From an uncultured Spirochaetaceae bacterium (GTDB lineage: Bacteria; Spirochaetota; Spirochaetia; Sphaerochaetales; Sphaerochaetaceae): a DNA stretch of 64,000 nt. The stretch is from NCBI GenBank assembly GCA_944392985.1, contig CALXYL010000004.1:1-64000 (forward strand). Reading direction: 5' to 3'. Shown piece by piece: positions 27,387-34,583 of the stretch; positions within the stretch are counted from its first letter, which is position 1, and each line of letters starts with the position of its first letter. The notes below the pieces were generated by a model that was given only the letters and a program-made list of their open reading frames with translations, had not been told where the DNA came from and did no database searches. Both the position numbers and the translations under genes were made by a program.

Positions 27387-28097
27387 GACCTATACATGGT
27401 TGCGACTCCGATAGGGAATCTTGAGGATATCACATACAGGGCGGTCAGAGTGCTGGGTGAGGTTGATGTCATTGCCTGTGAGGATACCCGGCATACGATG
27501 CAGCTGCTTTCGCATTATGGCATAAAGAAGCGCCTTATCGCCTGCCATGCCCACAATGAGGCGGAAAGCGCCGAGGGGATCCTCTCCCTTCTGGATAGCG
27601 GACAGAATGTCGCATACTGCTCCGATGCCGGCACCCCTGGTGTTTCCGATCCAGGGGCGAGGCTTGTTGAGAGGATCCGCCAGGATGGAAAGCATCGTGT
27701 GATCCCGATTCCAGGGGCATCTGCGGTTGTATCCCTTGTCTCCGCCGCGGGGAACATAGGGAAGAGCTTCACGTTTGAAGGCTTCCTTTCCCCTAAGAAG
27801 GGCAGGAGGATGAAGAGGCTTGAGGCGCTTTTCGCCGCTGGCAATGCCTTCGTCATCTATGAGTCTCCCTTCAGGATAACCAAGGCACTCAATGACATAA
27901 AGGAAGCGGGGCCAGGCTGCCGTGTCGTCATAGGAAGGGAACTCACGAAGGCGCATGAGGAGATCATTTCCGGGAGTATCGATGAAGTTGAGGCCATGCT
28001 TTCCGCGAGGGAGAGGATAAAGGGGGAGTTCGCTGTGATAGTGATCCCGGGAGCTTGTGATGATAACACCGAAGAAGATACGGAGCCTGAAGCCTAG
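27384..28097 (+). CDS. rsmI: 16S rRNA 2'-O-ribose C1402 methyltransferase RsmI
   Basis: 237 residues. It begins MDLYMVATPIGNLEDITYRA, has CEDTRHTMQLLSHYGI near 35, the SAM-site segment SDAGTPGVSDPG near 80 and IPGASA near 112, as in RsmI/YraL. It methylates C1402 of 16S rRNA. Its 3' end overlaps the start of the next methylase gene by 38 bp. Confidence 0.95.
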   Translation: MDLYMVATPIGNLEDITYRAVRVLGEVDVIACEDTRHTMQLLSHYGIKKRLIACHAHNEAESAEGILSLLDSGQNVAYCSDAGTPGVSDPGARLVERIRQDGKHRVIPIPGASAVVSLVSAAGNIGKSFTFEGFLSPKKGRRMKRLEALFAAGNAFVIYESPFRITKALNDIKEAGPGCRVVIGRELTKAHEEIISGSIDEVEAMLSARERIKGEFAVIVIPGACDDNTEEDTEPEA

Positions 28098-28812
28098 GGT
28101 TCAGCTGAGGAAGGCTGCTGATGTGTTCCACGAGGCAGCCTCTTCTGAAATGGAGCCTGGCTATCTTGATGAGGTGATGGAGATAGTCCTCTCCTCTGAT
28201 CTCGTTGATCGGGAGGATGCAGAGAGGATAAAACGCTTCTATTCCAAAGGGAAGGGCATCGGGTATGAGGATATCCACTACGCGCTTCTTTCCATCCTTG
28301 GAGATAGCCCCGCTGATTGGGACAAGCGCACCGAAGAAGGGGAGATAGACTGGTCCGTAAGGAAGAAGCTCGATCATTATCTCTTTCTTGATCATCTTCG
28401 CTCTCCGTACAATGTGGGAGCCATCTTCCGCAATTCCGAGGCATTCTGCGTCAAGGAGATATACCTTGCGCCAGGTACTGCCTCCCCTGAGCACCCACGT
28501 GCTGTACGGACATCAAGGAGTACGGTTGAGGCAATCCCATGGAAGGAAGCGGAGCTGGAGGAGATCGACAGCAGCCTGCCTGTATTCGCATTGGAGCTCG
28601 GTGGCACAGACATACGCCATTTCCGTTTCCCCGAAAAGGGACTCTGCATCATCGGTTCGGAGGAAACCGGCATAACTCCACAGGCAAGACAGCTGGCGGA
28701 ATCATCACTGGGCCTTGTCTCCATTCCTCAGTTCGGAGCGAAAGGCTCCATCAATGTGGCATCCGCTGTATCTATACTGCTTTATGAATGGATGAGGCAG
28801 AGCGGAGTATAG
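28060..28812 (+). CDS. SpoU/TrmH-family RNA 2'-O-methyltransferase
   Basis: 250 residues. The SPOUT knot motifs are clear: RSPYNVGAIFRNSEAF near 112, IIGSEETGI near 205 and IPQFGAKGSINVASAVSILLYEW near 225. The N-terminal 100 residues are a separate helical domain. Target RNA unknown. The ATG at 28060 lies inside the 3' end of rsmI with GGGAG 6-8 nt upstream. Confidence 0.88.
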   Translation: MITPKKIRSLKPRVQLRKAADVFHEAASSEMEPGYLDEVMEIVLSSDLVDREDAERIKRFYSKGKGIGYEDIHYALLSILGDSPADWDKRTEEGEIDWSVRKKLDHYLFLDHLRSPYNVGAIFRNSEAFCVKEIYLAPGTASPEHPRAVRTSRSTVEAIPWKEAELEEIDSSLPVFALELGGTDIRHFRFPEKGLCIIGSEETGITPQARQLAESSLGLVSIPQFGAKGSINVASAVSILLYEWMRQSGV

Positions 28813-28915
28813 GAATAATCATAAGAGCATCCTTCCTGGAAAGGAGAAATTGCTTGACGTTTATCTACCGGGTGGGAGTAAAGTTTGAGGCATAAGAAAA
28901 CAGGGAGTCCGTTTG

Positions 28916-29806
28916 ATGTTTTTCAGAAAGAAGAAGGAATATCGGCCTGAGGGTCTGGATAGAATTGCGGCTGATATTCAGAGAAAATACAGTTCAGAGG
29001 CATATCAGAAGTATCCGGAATTTGAGAAAGATCTGAGATACCGGATTGATGACGATCTTGATTATCAACTCAGCAGAATACTGTACAGAAGTCCGCTTTA
29101 CGAGTTCTCAATCGAACCTAACACGACTATTACGCCGTCGAATTTCATTCATGATGGCTTTTATCCATACTACACAGTGCAGGATGTCAAAATACTTTTC
29201 ATAGGGCGGGAAGCCTATCAGATGGATGCAAACAACTATATTGACGTTATGTTTCCTCAGATCCAAAGCGGGGTGACGAGAAGGAATGCAAATTCGAAAG
29301 GAAAACCTATAGATGAAGATCCATTTTATGCTGCACAGATGTATATCGCTTACTCCATACTTCATGATTGCATGCCATATGAACAGGTTCCTTGGGCAGA
29401 GGATTTCTGTTCTTCCTTCGGTACAGAGAACGGCATAAGTTTTGCTTTCATGAATATGAATAAATTCTCATCTTGGAGTAATACATGGAATACGAACTGG
29501 GAATTGATGGATGCATATATTGAGACTGCTGTTAATGACAATACCAACCATATTGAGGACGAAATATGTAATCTAAAGCCTGACATCATCATCTCGATGG
29601 GGTTTGAATACGACCGCCTTGCAGCTTTGGGTGGCATTCTTACGGAGAAATTGGAAAACAGTTCTTCAATTACGAACGTCCATCATCTGACCATGTTGGG
29701 ACAGATGATCCCTGTCCTTGATACTTATCATTTCTCGAAACCTGGAAAACTCGATGCAATCTGCAAGGATGTGATTGCAAGAGCTAAAGAGGAATTAGGA
29801 CTGTGA
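28916..29806 (+). CDS. Uracil-DNA-glycosylase-like protein (tentative)
   Basis: 296 residues, no signal peptide. VKILFIGREAYQMDANNY near 100, NLKPDIIISMGFEYDRLAALG near 220 and VLDTYHFSKPGKLDAIC near 270 are laid out like the first, middle and last motifs of the uracil-DNA glycosylase superfamily, but without catalytic residues I can assign. That is an inference from pattern only. Codon use is A+T-richer than in neighbouring core genes, suggesting acquisition. The start is the ATG at 28916 behind GGGAG. It is coupled to the next gene (GTGA). Confidence 0.5.
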   Translation: MFFRKKKEYRPEGLDRIAADIQRKYSSEAYQKYPEFEKDLRYRIDDDLDYQLSRILYRSPLYEFSIEPNTTITPSNFIHDGFYPYYTVQDVKILFIGREAYQMDANNYIDVMFPQIQSGVTRRNANSKGKPIDEDPFYAAQMYIAYSILHDCMPYEQVPWAEDFCSSFGTENGISFAFMNMNKFSSWSNTWNTNWELMDAYIETAVNDNTNHIEDEICNLKPDIIISMGFEYDRLAALGGILTEKLENSSSITNVHHLTMLGQMIPVLDTYHFSKPGKLDAICKDVIARAKEELGL

Positions 29807-30162
29807 CATTCAAGCATAATTTCACATATAAGGTTATCGTGTTCGGTATTCCCATCATTCTTTTGATTGCCTCAGTAGGTACTGCAATCTTTGTAGCAGC
29901 TCCTTGGATTATAATAGGGATAATCAAGTGCTGCTATGACAGAATCTATATAGACGAGTCCGTTGTAAGTATCAAATACCTCAGCATTCGAGGCTTTATT
30001 AATGAGTCCTGGTCTCTTCGCAGAGTGAGGGAGGTAAAGAGAAGAAGCATCGGATTTGGGTTCAATGAAATCCTGATTCAGGGAACATATAATACAAGTT
30101 ACCTGATGGGATGTGTTAAACGCTCAAAACAACTCGTCAGATATTATGAAAGCCTACTTTAG
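29803..30162 (+). CDS. Small membrane protein
   Basis: 119 residues from a GTG overlapping the preceding stop. Two hydrophobic segments (about 10-28 and 30-46) are followed by a cytosolic basic domain of about 70 residues. It resembles PH-like membrane-anchored small proteins but no family is certain. It is probably co-expressed with the UDG-like gene. Confidence 0.5.
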   Translation: MTFKHNFTYKVIVFGIPIILLIASVGTAIFVAAPWIIIGIIKCCYDRIYIDESVVSIKYLSIRGFINESWSLRRVREVKRRSIGFGFNEILIQGTYNTSYLMGCVKRSKQLVRYYESLL

Positions 30163-30335
30163 AATCTTGTTGTATCTAAGTCAGAAATCACACCATCGGT
30201 CGGCAGTCAATGCTGGCTGTTTTTGCTATCTCTAGCCCTTAAGTACATCATCCCTGTCGTGAATCAAACAGCTGGTTTCTTCCTTATCATGATTGTTTTC
30301 CCCAGAGAAGTTTTCTTCCGCGGGGAAGATTTCCC

Positions 30336-30366
30336 TTGACGATTATGAACGGGGGGGGGGTACCTT
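30336..30366 (+). promoter_or_regulatory. Putative phase-variable promoter with a G10 spacer tract
   Basis: TTGACG (30336-30341) is separated from a poor -10 (TACCTT, 30361-30366) by 19 bp, of which ten are an uninterrupted G run (30351-30360). Loss of two G would give a 17-bp spacer. Tracts of this sort in promoters drive on/off switching in Neisseria porA and Treponema tpr genes. Confidence 0.6.
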
Positions 30367-30397
30367 CTGAATAGAAATTCTTTTCTGGAGGTTCACT

Positions 30398-31126
30398 ATG
30401 AAGAAGATTTTCGCAGTTCTGCTTGCTGTCATGATGCTCTTTGCATTCGTGGCATGTGAGAATGATACGCCGACGGTTGATGACGGAAAGCCAGAGAACG
30501 CGGTAGTGTATGTAACGTTCGAGAACAATGATTGGGAAGGAATCATTGTTGATCCAGACGCAGAAGAGACTTCAAGTTTTACTGTTGCTGATGGTGTTCT
30601 TTCCTTCACTGCCGGTGGTGCGTACTTCGGATACTCAGATGTTGACCCGAAGCTGCTTCCAACAGCAGAGAAGAGCTATGAGATGTCCTATCAGCTCACT
30701 GTCACAGCTCCTGAGGATGGAAAGACAACTTCCCTCAAGTTCTCCAACCCGCTTGGATCTGGTGGAGTAGGTGAGTATCTTACTCTGACACTGGCAGATG
30801 GAAAGATCTCCGCAAAGGCAACTGAAGCAAATAAGGTTGACGCGATGGCTGTAGAGCTTGGCAACGAATTCACGATCGAAGGAGATTCAGTTGTTGTTGA
30901 CGTGACTGTCCTTTATGAGTTTGTTTCCGAAGGTCAGTACAAGGTATCACTCTCAGTTGCTTATGATGGTGAAGAGGCTTGTGCACCAGTAACGGCAACA
31001 GGTGGTGCTGCTGATACCAATACGGTATCCTGGTCGTTCTATGGAGGAGCGGATGGAGCTGGTGAAATGGCAACTGCAACACTCAACTCCTTTGTTGTTC
31101 TTGAGAACGCTGTAGCAGAAGCATAA
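30398..31126 (+). CDS. Surface lipoprotein behind a poly-G promoter
   Basis: 242 residues. The signal peptide ends in a lipobox (FAFVAC, Cys20). The mature part is acidic, Ala/Thr/Gly-rich and beta-strand-like, with no motif I know; residues 40-235 resemble a concanavalin-like sandwich in strand pattern only. GGAGG lies 8 nt before the ATG. The upstream G10 tract suggests switchable expression. A convergent lipoprotein gene follows. Confidence 0.75.
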   Translation: MKKIFAVLLAVMMLFAFVACENDTPTVDDGKPENAVVYVTFENNDWEGIIVDPDAEETSSFTVADGVLSFTAGGAYFGYSDVDPKLLPTAEKSYEMSYQLTVTAPEDGKTTSLKFSNPLGSGGVGEYLTLTLADGKISAKATEANKVDAMAVELGNEFTIEGDSVVVDVTVLYEFVSEGQYKVSLSVAYDGEEACAPVTATGGAADTNTVSWSFYGGADGAGEMATATLNSFVVLENAVAEA

Positions 31127-31235
31127 GGTATTCTTCGGAGATTGGACAATTCCATCCCCGATTCATAAAGAAGGCCCGTCAGAAGTGATCAGGAATACCT
31201 GACAGCTTCATTGGCGGGCCTCATTCTGTCTGAGT

Positions 31236-32628
31236 TCACTCAGATTGTGTTGTTCCGTTCGCGGCTTCCTCAAAATCCTGCTTGAAAACTTCATGTTCCT
31301 GGATTGTTATTCCGTAGGGCCAGTACGTTGATCTGCCATAGGTATCATGCAATGCGGCATAGGTGAAGTTCGCGATGAAGTTTCCGTTGTCCAATCCGCA
31401 GTTCTCAAGATGCATCCGGATAAGCTCCTTCTGCAGTTCTTCATCTGTTTCTACCTTTGATGGAAGATTCTCGTAGAAATGACCGAATCCGGTATTGTCC
31501 CATGTTGCCTTTGTGACATCGAGGAACACGCCCTGTGTACTTCCAGGACCATCATTATAGGGATTCGTGAATGTCGCGGAGGCTGTATGGCTGTTCTTCC
31601 AGCTGTAGAGGACAGGATCCAGACTCATGCCATCGAAAATGGGTTCTTCTTTCCTCATTGCATTATCGAAGTTGAGTTCCTCCAATGAGGCATCCTTGAA
31701 TTCCTGATATGACCGATATGGTCTGTGCAGATCGTTGTTGCCATCTGCATACATGAGATTATTTGCATTCTCGTAGAATTCCCTGATAACCCCATAAATA
31801 AATCCAACACCGACACTACTTGCTTCTTCTCTGGTATCTATCAGTCTATTTCCGTTGCTATCCTTTTCGGAGATGCATTCCGCAACAATCAAACTGTAAA
31901 AATCATCAGTTCCATAGGTCATGTCAGGGCGGAACACGGATGCAAAAAGATCCTTGCTGCTGGTTCCGGAGAGGTAAGACCGGATGAATTTCACACTCCC
32001 ATTCCCGTTGAACCTTATGGTATCTGCAAATGCGTTGCACTCTGTGGCACCAGCGCGATCAAGCTGTCCGAATTCAAAGCGACCGATCTGGTTGTGGTTC
32101 CTGACAGGGATGTCATTGTATTCAAGCGAGATCAGGGAAGTTGTCTGCGGATCAATATATGTGACCATGACCATCTGGCGGTATGAGAACACCTTTTCTT
32201 CGAAGCTGTAGTAATACTGGATGAATCCGACATTATTTCCGTTCGCATATATATCGTACACCAGCGTGAAGCCATCTCTGTTCTCTGCCCAGACCGCTGT
32301 GTCGGGACTGACCTCGAAGCCAAGCACGGTGAAGGAACCCTTTTCGTTGGCGTCCTCGATGATCTCATTGAAATTATTCTTCTTGACGTTCTCGTAGCCA
32401 ATCATCACGGGAAGGGCCTGCATCACGCCGGAAGAGCGCCACTTCTCTCCATCCCATACCTCTCCGGTCGGCATGTCGATCAAGCCGCGCTGGTTCAATG
32501 CAGAGCTTTCTCTGATTTCCGAGAATACGGGAAGCGTGTAATCCTTGGGTGTGTCACTCCCCCCCCATGCTACAGGAAGAAAGGGCAAGAGCCCCTGCCA
32601 GAATAAGCATGAATGCAGTCTTTCTCAT
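31236..32628 (-). pseudogene. Phase-OFF surface lipoprotein gene (G8 tract after the lipobox)
   Basis: The ATG at 32628 (GAGG 8 nt upstream) encodes a lipoprotein signal ending LALSSC; then a run of eight G (32566-32559) leads to a TGA after 24 codons. The remaining 440-codon frame is open but offset by one base. Removing one G (or adding two) joins signal and body into a 463-residue lipoprotein. This is better read as a switched-off contingency gene than as a dead one, since the downstream frame has no other lesion. The body is a large beta-rich protein of unknown family with a HPYRSYQEFKDASLEELNFD-like helical part. Confidence 0.75.
32559..32566 (-). repeat. G8 homopolymer in the coding region
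   Basis: Eight C on the + strand, eight G on the coding strand, spanning Met-Gly-Gly codons directly behind the lipidated cysteine. Slippage here changes the reading frame of the lipoprotein gene. Confidence 0.85.
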
Positions 32629-32696
32629 ATGATTAACCTCAACTGATCAGAGGTTATCATGATGGGAGGGGCCTGTCATCTCAATGGTGTTCTTCC

Positions 32697-34583
32697 TCAG
32701 CCTTTTTCCTGGCTGTACCTGCAGAGATTACGGAGGCCATCCTCGACACGCCTGTTGAATGAAGAGAGGGGGAACTGGCCTTTCCTGTCCCTTCTGCCGC
32801 TTTTCATTCCAGTTAGAAGCTCTATGCCGTCGTCCGCTTCCGTAATGGCATAAAGATGGAAGAGCCCTTCATCGATGGCCTTCTCGATTCGGCGGGGAAG
32901 GATCAGCGAGGAGATGTTCTGGCGGGGTATCATCACGCCCTGCGTTCCGGTCAGCCCGGAGACTGAGCATGCGTTGAAGAAGCCCTGTATCTTCTCGTTG
33001 ATGCCACCTACGGGCTGTAGCGTACCCATCTGGCTGACAGATCCTGTCACTGCGATATCCTGCCTGATCGGGATCTCTGCAATCGCAGAAAGCAGTGCAT
33101 ACAGCTCTCCAAGGGAGGCGCTGTCCCCGTCGACTTCGGCATAGCTCTGCTCGAAGCATATCCCCGCATAGAGCGAGAGGGGGAAGGTCTTTGCATAGCG
33201 GTGGCGGAGGAACCCTTCGAGGATCAGGAGGCCCTTGTCGTGGATGCCTCCTGAGAGACCTGCCTCGTGCTCGATGTTCACGATTCCCTCGTTTCCGGGA
33301 GCGACTGTTGCGGAGATGACTGCAGGTGTCCCGAAGGATGATACGCCTCGGTCCATCACTGCAAGGCCGTTGACAATCCCTATCTTCGAGCCTGAGAGCT
33401 CTATGACCATGTTGCCTTTGCGGATCTCCTCGTTTATCGTCTCTTCAGAGAGGGAGGCATGCCAGCTTCGCGCCTCAAGTGCCTCTTCAACATCGTTTCT
33501 TCCGATGCTTCTGCTTTTCCTTTCCATTGCCTTGAGATTCGATTCCTCCAGGAGGTCTCCAAGAAGCGAGAGCTCCGTCGTGAGCCTGTCCCGGTCCTCC
33601 GCAATGCAGGATGAATACCTGAGGATCTCACTGTAGGCACCGTCGTCCGCAGGCAGGAAACCCTGGCCCGCCGCCTTCAGGTAGCTGACCGTGCCCCTCA
33701 TGTTCTCCTCGTTTCTCGGCATCGTGTAATCGAACTCGGGCGCTATGCGGAAGTAGCGGATGAATTTGTCATCCTTCTCGATGAGGCGGTTGTATGTATC
33801 CTCCGTGCCTGTGAGGATGATCTTCGTCAGTATGGGAATCGGTTCAGGACGCACGGCGCCGATCATCTCTCCTGTCACGGCATCTGAAGAGAGTGCACGA
33901 TGCGTCATCTCAAGGTATCTCTTAAGCGTTTTCCAGAGAGCTTCATCGCCTGTGATCTCCTCCGCGTTCATTATGAGGAATCCTCCAGCGGCCTTCTGGT
34001 ATGAACCGATGCGGATAGCGAGATGCGGAGGCATGTTCCGCTCCGTCATTCCGAAAAGTGACTGGTGCGAAGGATGGGCCTCTATGATCGTGGGACGCGC
34101 TGTGCTTCCATCATGGCTTATGACGATATTCAGGCGATAGGCATCGGGATTCTCATCATATGAAGGAAGGGCGGAGACGAACGCCTGTATCCTTGGATCA
34201 TTCCAGGATTCCAGCAGTTCTTCCTTTCCGATGCTGCCTTTCCCCAATGACAGCAGATCATTCTGGAATCTTCCTGCCATGCCGCAAGGAAAGAGCAGGA
34301 GCCTTGCGCTCTCTGTGGAGCTAGACCATGCATATGCGGCATCGCGTAGGCTGTGGCTGCTTTCCGGCATCTTCCCGATTTCACCGAGAACAGCTGTCAG
34401 CCGCCCTGATCCATCCTCTCCGGAGAGGAAGATGTTATAGCCGACCCTGTCAATCGATAATCCCAGCCGGAGCAGGCTCAATGCCTTCTCCTGTCCTGTA
34501 ATGGCGGTTCCTGCTTCCGTATCGATAAAGGATGCTATTGGCTCGCTGAGCCTGAGTTCCTCTGTCCTGAGTTCTCTGATCAC
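32697..34583 (-). CDS. Lon-like protease with degenerate ATPase domain (LonB/AAA_32 type)
   Basis: 628 residues. The C-terminal third is a Lon protease domain with the Ser in DGDSASLGE near 495 and the Lys in VGGINEKIQGF near 540. The N-terminal two thirds resembles the AAA_32 group. The P-loop reads GEDGSGRLTA near 56, with Arg in place of the usual Lys, so ATP use may be altered. The start is GTG at 34583, directly downstream of a strong promoter, with no SD. Confidence 0.85.
   Translation of the reverse strand: MIRELRTEELRLSEPIASFIDTEAGTAITGQEKALSLLRLGLSIDRVGYNIFLSGEDGSGRLTAVLGEIGKMPESSHSLRDAAYAWSSSTESARLLLFPCGMAGRFQNDLLSLGKGSIGKEELLESWNDPRIQAFVSALPSYDENPDAYRLNIVISHDGSTARPTIIEAHPSHQSLFGMTERNMPPHLAIRIGSYQKAAGGFLIMNAEEITGDEALWKTLKRYLEMTHRALSSDAVTGEMIGAVRPEPIPILTKIILTGTEDTYNRLIEKDDKFIRYFRIAPEFDYTMPRNEENMRGTVSYLKAAGQGFLPADDGAYSEILRYSSCIAEDRDRLTTELSLLGDLLEESNLKAMERKSRSIGRNDVEEALEARSWHASLSEETINEEIRKGNMVIELSGSKIGIVNGLAVMDRGVSSFGTPAVISATVAPGNEGIVNIEHEAGLSGGIHDKGLLILEGFLRHRYAKTFPLSLYAGICFEQSYAEVDGDSASLGELYALLSAIAEIPIRQDIAVTGSVSQMGTLQPVGGINEKIQGFFNACSVSGLTGTQGVMIPRQNISSLILPRRIEKAIDEGLFHLYAITEADDGIELLTGMKSGRRDRKGQFPLSSFNRRVEDGLRNLCRYSQEKG

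What the first reader, a model, noticed from the sequence alone, without database searches (positions are those of the whole stretch)
31236..32628. Lipoprotein gene switched OFF by a G8 tract immediately after the lipobox
Signal and 440-codon body are in different frames solely because of one G in the eight-G run; with seven G the whole is a normal 463-residue lipoprotein. The body frame is otherwise undamaged, which argues for recent, reversible switching. It lies convergent to the G10-promoter lipoprotein, so this island holds two contingency loci that could vary independently.
Basis: partly seen in the sequence, partly recalled or inferred. Interest (0 to 1): 0.8.

Follow-up and report, generated by a model that had tools for sequence, protein, structure and literature searches.

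The report
Lipoprotein gene with poly-G switch (OFF)
In an uncultured gut spirochaete, a surface-lipoprotein gene is put out of frame by a run of eight Gs just after its membrane-anchor signal; comparison with 47 sister species shows this is one of about twenty slippery on/off switches in its genome, which act almost entirely on surface proteins.

Summary
On the minus strand a 24-codon lipoprotein signal (MRKTAFMLILAGALALSSC-SMGGE*) runs into G8 (32559-32566) and stops; the remaining 440 codons are open in another frame. A 57%-identical homologue in a sister species has signal and body in one frame, so the two halves are one gene.

G8 is not chance background. The 1.96-Mb genome has 4 G7, 4 G8, 13 G9 and 5 G10 runs (about 1.6 runs of 8 or more expected). 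Of these 22 tracts, 21 lie on the coding strand of a gene, and 19 near the 5' end of a gene for an exported protein: 12 in promoters (10 as TTGACN-N9/10-Gn-TANNNT, including the neighbouring G10 lipoprotein) and 7 at the end of a signal peptide. All 48 species of the genus (Candidatus Ornithospirochaeta-like) have such tracts. Identical promoter cores with n=8 or 9 occur within one genome. Homologues of this gene carry a tract in the promoter in some species and in the N-terminal coding region in others.

Best explanation: a slipped-strand contingency locus, OFF in the assembled consensus. The kind is known (Treponema pallidum, Neisseria, Campylobacter); I found no report for this family. No reads were available, so switching is inferred.

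The parts
31236..32628 (-). Phase-variable lipoprotein gene (signal plus body), out of frame in the assembled sequence
   Evidence: homologue L002 with signal and body in one frame
32554..32628 (-). Signal ORF as assembled: 24 aa plus stop, MRKTAFMLILAGALALSSCSMGGE*
32572..32574 (-). Lipobox cysteine codon (LSSC)
   Evidence: sequence; lipobox definition as in PMC5472700
32559..32566 (-). G8 tract, starting 5 nt after the lipobox Cys codon
31236..32558 (-). Body: 440 codons plus stop, open, in a frame different from the signal
   Evidence: substitutions by codon position against L002 are 148/102/269
30398..31126 (+). Convergent lipoprotein gene (242 aa, MKKIFAVLLAVMMLFAFVAC) under a poly-G promoter
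30336..30366 (+). Poly-G spacer promoter TTGACG-N9-G10-TACCTT (spacer 19) of the convergent lipoprotein
28813..32696 (.). About 3.9-kb island holding both contingency loci, between an rRNA-methyltransferase-like gene (28057-28812, +) and a LonB-type protease gene (32697-34583, -). In sister species the sequence just after the protease gene matches the end of that methyltransferase-like gene by eye.

Best explanation
The gene is a translational contingency (phase-variation) locus. The poly-G tract sits in the linker directly after the lipidated cysteine. Slipped-strand mispairing during replication would lengthen or shorten it by a base, so that daughter cells either read signal and body in one frame (a 463-residue lipoprotein, ON) or stop three codons after the lipobox Cys region (a 24-residue peptide, OFF). 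The assembled genome shows an OFF length. It belongs to a genome-wide set of 22 poly-G tracts with two designs: spacer-length promoters and frame switches at the end of signal peptides, nearly all on surface or exported proteins. Shown here: the frame break, the intact body, unity of signal and body in a homologue, the genome-wide and genus-wide association, and tract-length differences between otherwise matching copies within genomes. Inferred: the slippage itself, its rate and reversibility, surface location, and the benefit (variation of exposed antigens or receptors in the gut). The molecular function of the lipoprotein is unknown.
For: (1) Run-length spectrum: 4 G7, 4 G8, 13 G9, 5 G10 in 1.96 Mb against about 1.6 runs of 8 or more by extrapolation. 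(2) 21 of 22 tracts are on the coding strand of a linked gene and 19 of 22 lie from about 90 nt before to about 77 nt after a start codon of a gene with an export signal (rough binomial p about 3e-18, assuming some 1,800 genes). (3) Ten own-genome promoters, and promoters in 34 of 48 species of the genus, show TTGAC-N10/11-Gn-TANNNT; the reversed-pattern control gives 0 in all 48 genomes. (4) Length variation within genomes: in G047 the core TTGACAAATCGATACC-Gn-TAGGCT occurs with n=8 and n=9 upstream of nearly identical leaders; homologous OMPs in the own genome have G9 (in frame, two copies) and G8 (out of frame, one copy) at the same place. (5) Homologues of this lipoprotein: tract in the promoter region in G040 (C10), G007 (G9) and G002 (G9), in the N-terminal coding region and out of frame in G017 (G9), and at the 5' end in G018 and G054. 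Six of 13 loci against about 0.2% expected each, P about 3e-13. (6) The same post-lipobox position recurs: own C1 lipoprotein (G9, in frame, SCSDPMGGG) and G040 C13 (G8, in frame, PACTGGGN).
Against: No reads and no second strain of this species were available, so no length polymorphism was seen at this tract itself. G8 is at the short end of the range, where slippage is slower. A one-base consensus error in a homopolymer of a draft assembly would look the same. The promoter -10/-35 assignments are consensus matches only. The enrichment p-values rest on rough background rates.
Confidence: 0.86

Rival explanations
1. Assembly or consensus error: the true tract length is the in-frame one and the gene is ordinary and constitutively in frame.
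For: Draft assembly (39 contigs); homopolymer lengths are the classic place for one-base errors; 7 of 9 coding tracts in this genome are in frame, so an out-of-frame one is the minority state.
Against: Even if true, a G7 directly after a lipobox in a genome with a strongly two-peaked run spectrum would still be a short contingency tract. G9 and G10 tracts elsewhere in the same assembly are in frame, so there is no sign of general undercounting or overcounting. G017's homologue is also out of frame at its own tract, in an independent assembly.
Confidence: 0.08
2. Recent pseudogene: a chance frameshift that is on its way to decay, without programmed switching.
For: The assembled gene cannot make the full product; the family is patchy across the genus (11 of 48 genomes), and decayed copies exist (a split copy without a tract in G015, a fragment in G010).
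Against: No other damage in 440 codons; the frame break falls exactly at a G8 tract at the kind of place (end of the signal peptide) where the genome has six other tracts; homologues in other species carry tracts at different 5' sites.
Confidence: 0.04
3. The full protein is made despite the frame break, by transcriptional slippage or ribosomal frameshifting on the G run, or the body is made as an unlipidated protein from an internal start (for example TTG at 32588).
For: G runs can be slippery for polymerases and ribosomes; an open body frame begins at a TTG at 32588.
Against: No conserved slippery or stimulatory element: homologues place the tract at different sites, including promoters, which a recoding device could not do. 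The RNA around the start is not unusually structured (z -0.28). An internally started protein would lack the export signal that all intact homologues have.
Confidence: 0.02

Closest known systems
Treponema pallidum poly-G loci (tp0126, tprL, tprE/G/J and coding-region tracts); PMC7864442
   Same: A spirochaete; G tracts of 7-11, mostly 9; in tp0126 the tract lies between -35 and -10 and expression is best at a 17-nt spacing; other tracts lie within ORFs (for example +56 from the annotated start); targets are outer-membrane proteins; length variation measured in vivo.
   Different: A different lineage (Sphaerochaetaceae-like gut genus); targets here are mostly lipoproteins; promoters share one stereotyped register across many genes; the tract of this finding is a coding one directly after a lipobox. 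No protein homology was tested or claimed.
Neisseria meningitidis nalP and ausI (coding poly-C) and porA (poly-G between -35 and -10); PMC5472700, PMC7864442
   Same: Homopolymer slippage: coding tracts that toggle surface proteins, and spacer tracts that tune a promoter.
   Different: C rather than G in the coding tract; autotransporters and porins, unrelated to this lipoprotein.
Campylobacter poly-G phasome; PMC6321876
   Same: Genus-wide set of poly-G/C tracts with the same length peak (9: 53%, 10: 26% there; 9: 13 of 22, 10: 5 of 22 here), mostly G on the coding strand.
   Different: In Campylobacter most tracts (77%) are inside ORFs; here 12 of 22 are in promoters.

Membership tests
Simple-sequence-repeat contingency (phase-variation) locus | Homopolymeric tract of a length shown to be hypermutable (7 or more G/C in PMC6321876) | tested here: met
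   G8 at 32559-32566
Simple-sequence-repeat contingency (phase-variation) locus | Tract placed so that a length change switches translation or transcription | tested here: met
   Tract is inside the ORF, 62 nt after the start codon; signal and body frames differ
Simple-sequence-repeat contingency (phase-variation) locus | Length polymorphism at this tract within a population or between strains | not testable with these tools
   No reads and no second genome of the species. Proxy only: matching tracts of different length in other genes
Simple-sequence-repeat contingency (phase-variation) locus | Expression follows tract length, reversibly | not testable with these tools
   Needs a reporter or immunoblot
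Bacterial lipoprotein | N-terminal n-region, hydrophobic core and lipobox [LVI][ASTVI][GAS]C | tested here: met
   MRKTAFMLILAGALALSSC: the last four letters, L-S-S-C, fit the motif as given in PMC5472700
Known Pfam domain family for the body | Match to a Pfam-A model | tested here: not met
   No family at E 0.1; AlphaFold model (pLDDT 69, pTM 0.75) has no PDB match at E 0.001
Poly-G spacer promoter (porA / tp0126 type), for the convergent G10 lipoprotein | G tract between -35-like and -10-like hexamers upstream of the gene | tested here: met
   TTGACG-N9-G10-TACCTT, start codon 38 nt after the tract; promoter activity itself not tested

The most novel reading that the evidence does not exclude
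In this uncultured gut spirochaete genus, switching of surface lipoproteins is itself under selection and is spread modularly. A unit of poly-G promoter, ribosome-binding site and signal peptide up to the lipobox is copied onto unrelated mature proteins, and one lipoprotein family has acquired G or C tracts several times at different 5' sites (promoter spacer, post-lipobox linker, later linker), giving two interchangeable designs of switch.
Probability: 0.5. Interest if true: 0.65.

Novelty: new member of a known kind. Interest (0 to 1): 0.5.

Why it matters
It extends large-scale poly-G phase variation, within spirochaetes best known from the syphilis agent, to a genus of uncultured gut commensals, with a ready list of switch loci per genome. 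Because the tracts are short and dozens of species have assemblies, metagenomic reads could show directly how often such switches flip in a gut and whether the ON/OFF pattern follows host or gut site. The movement of the tract between promoter and coding positions in one gene family is a natural experiment on how contingency loci arise.

Tried and rejected
Dinucleotide-shuffle significance of G7 in the window: not significant, so replaced by the genome run-length spectrum. Single-protein scan of genome contigs for homologues: none confirmed. Synteny: none of the 80 fetched protease-gene loci encodes a homologue of either lipoprotein, so the island is not conserved at this site. Pfam on the lipoprotein: nothing. 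AlphaFold and Foldseek against PDB: a beta-rich core with a helical C-terminal part, no match at E 0.001. Own second post-lipobox lipoprotein (C1) searched in the genus for orthologues with other tract lengths: found only in this genome. RNA structure around the start codon: an inverted repeat (AACCTC...GAGGTT) overlaps a possible ribosome-binding site, but the fold is no better than shuffles, so not pursued. Consensus promoter scan upstream of the gene: only a weak match (TTGAGA-17-CATGAT), no tract in it. A re-check of a C9 tract after a lipobox in G018 (L139) with a wrongly chosen frame gave nothing usable; that example rests only and is not used as evidence.

Full report
What is there. The minus strand from 32628 to 31236 carries a lipoprotein gene in two frames. 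The first frame reads MRKTAFMLILAGALALSSCSMGGE and stops. The second, which includes everything after the G8 at 32559-32566, is open for 440 codons. The tract begins five bases after the lipobox cysteine codon. Between this body and the closest homogue's (L002, G040, 57% identity), differences fall 148/102/269 at codon positions 1/2/3 over 428 aligned codons, and 134 of 241 codons with the same amino acid differ silently. That is the pattern of a protein kept by selection along the two lineages; it does not date the frame break.

Are signal and body one gene? Yes in relatives. L002 reads MKKLSTLLAVSFLLIAIFTSCESGIPKDYVMPVF... in a single frame and aligns with SCSMGG...DTPKDYTLPVF here. Six further homologues also show a signal ahead of the body in one frame (L004, L006, L007, L011, L012, L013).

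Which organism? The window is contig C4 of a 1.96-Mb draft genome, 95.9% complete. The adjacent LonB-type protease gene finds named relatives that include Candidatus Ornithospirochaeta species and many uncultured Spirochaetaceae/Spirochaetales MAGs. The genus label is therefore an inference from the protease gene, not a stated taxonomy of the window.

The island. In several sister species the sequence directly after the protease gene appears to be the end of the rRNA-methyltransferase-like gene that lies at 28057-28812 in the window (read by eye). Here about 3.9 kb, holding two unknown ORFs and both lipoprotein genes, lies between them. None of the 80 fetched protease-gene loci encodes a homologue of either lipoprotein. 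The two genes therefore look like an insertion.

The genome-wide picture. The genome has 22 G runs of 8 or more (45 overlapping hits; lengths 8 x4, 9 x13, 10 x5) and only four runs of exactly 7. Extrapolation from short runs predicts about 1.6 runs of 8 or more. Contexts were read one by one. Twelve lie upstream of genes for exported proteins, mostly lipoproteins. Ten of these twelve show TTGACN, 9 or 10 bases, the tract, then TANNNT, giving spacers of 17 (one), 18 (one), 19 (seven) and 20 (one). Nine lie inside ORFs: a lipoprotein with the tract just after the lipobox (C1, in frame), the gene of this finding (out of frame), a solute-binding protein, three related outer-membrane-type proteins, two Wzi-like proteins (one with only a sub-threshold Pfam match, the other assigned by sequence likeness at the N-terminus), and an acyltransferase. 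Seven of these nine are in frame. One tract (C34) has no clear gene. In the tract-to-gene links that could be made, G is always on the coding strand.

The genus. All 48 genomes have tracts of 8 or more. The promoter pattern occurs in 34 of 48 genomes, and the same pattern read backwards occurs in none. Fifty-odd tracts from three sister species were read in context: in G018 and G042 most lie 25-100 bases before a lipoprotein start; in G040 the picture is more mixed. Other spirochaete families also hold many G8+ runs, which I did not analyse, so I do not claim that the tracts are unique to this genus.

Evidence that tract length varies. In G047 nine lipoprotein promoters share a nearly identical stretch from the -35 box through the ribosome-binding site into the signal peptide, while upstream flanks and mature proteins differ. 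The identical core TTGACAAATCGATACC...TAGGCT has n=9 in four copies and n=8 in two; the sister core TTGACAAATTGATACC has n=8 and n=11. In the own genome two outer-membrane proteins have G9 in frame at the signal-peptide end, and a homologue (36% identity over 100 residues) has G8 out of frame at the corresponding place.

The gene family. A profile search finds the family in 11 of 48 genomes. [quoted passage not shown] N-terminal coding region and out of frame in G017; directly before the body in G018 and G054, where the N-terminal part is missing or cut by the contig end. One more (G007 C135) has a G6 between TTGACT and TATCCT, possibly a shortened switch. With tracts at about 17 per 2.1 Mb, a 300-base stretch would hold one in about 0.2% of cases, so six of 13 is far from chance (P about 3e-13; the 13 loci are not all independent).

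How it most likely works. Shown: a frame break at a tract, intact flanks, unity of the gene in a homologue, and the company the tract keeps. Inferred: replication slippage adds or removes a base; ON cells make the lipoprotein and OFF cells a short peptide. The post-lipobox linker is a sensible place because extra Gly residues there should be harmless to export and lipidation. The convergent G10 lipoprotein would vary separately through promoter spacing; its 19-nt spacer is longer than the 17 nt reported as best for tp0126 (PMC7864442), so it may be weakly expressed in the assembled state.

Comparison with the known. The mechanism class is well established: T. pallidum (spacer tracts and coding tracts, lengths 7-11; PMC7864442), N. 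meningitidis nalP/ausI (coding poly-C) and porA (spacer; PMC5472700, PMC7864442), Campylobacter (genus-wide poly-G, peak at 9; PMC6321876). Full-text searches found no paper with Sphaerochaeta and phase variation together, and three papers naming Ornithospirochaeta, none with phase variation in view from its title or abstract. The library holds open-licence papers only, so a report elsewhere cannot be excluded.

Limits. No reads, one genome per species, consensus promoters only, rough backgrounds for p-values, and no function for the body (no Pfam family, no PDB fold match).

Noticed in passing
L175-L183 (G047 contigs C15, C51, C54, C66, C68, C86, C90, C98, C101): A stretch from the -35 box through the poly-G tract, ribosome-binding site and signal peptide is nearly identical in nine lipoprotein genes whose upstream flanks and mature parts differ, as if a switch-plus-signal unit were copied or gene-converted.
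   Followed up: partly
G004 C31, C35, C49; G019 C6, C48; G012 C15, C19, C42; G036 C38, C44: Contig ends lie within about 20-200 bases of poly-G promoters in several sister species, consistent with repeated leaders breaking the assembly; rearrangement at these sites is possible.
   Followed up: no
L140:2557 (G018 C1:24555): The homologue's body starts right at a G9 tract that directly follows a terminator-like hairpin after a livF-like gene; its signal part is missing. Either a deletion or a chimeric assembly join at the tract.
   Followed up: no
L023:3392 and L023:5661 (G000 C7), L027:3658 (G000 C20): Outer-membrane-type paralogues with a tract at the signal-peptide end: two with G9 (in frame, near-identical 5' regions) and one with G8 (out of frame).
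   Followed up: yes
L016:3272 (G000 C2:16771) and L025:3529 (G000 C8:22528): G8 in a sugar-type solute-binding protein just after the signal peptide, and G9 at codon 268 of an acyltransferase: possible switches of transport and of lipid modification.
   Followed up: no
L010/L014 (G015 C8:18612-19936): A homologue of this lipoprotein is split into two frames without any G tract, so it is either a decayed copy or an assembly error.
   Followed up: no
window 28913-30162: Two ORFs (297 and 119 aa) in the same island; the 119-aa one and the 297-aa one have no Pfam match.
   Followed up: no
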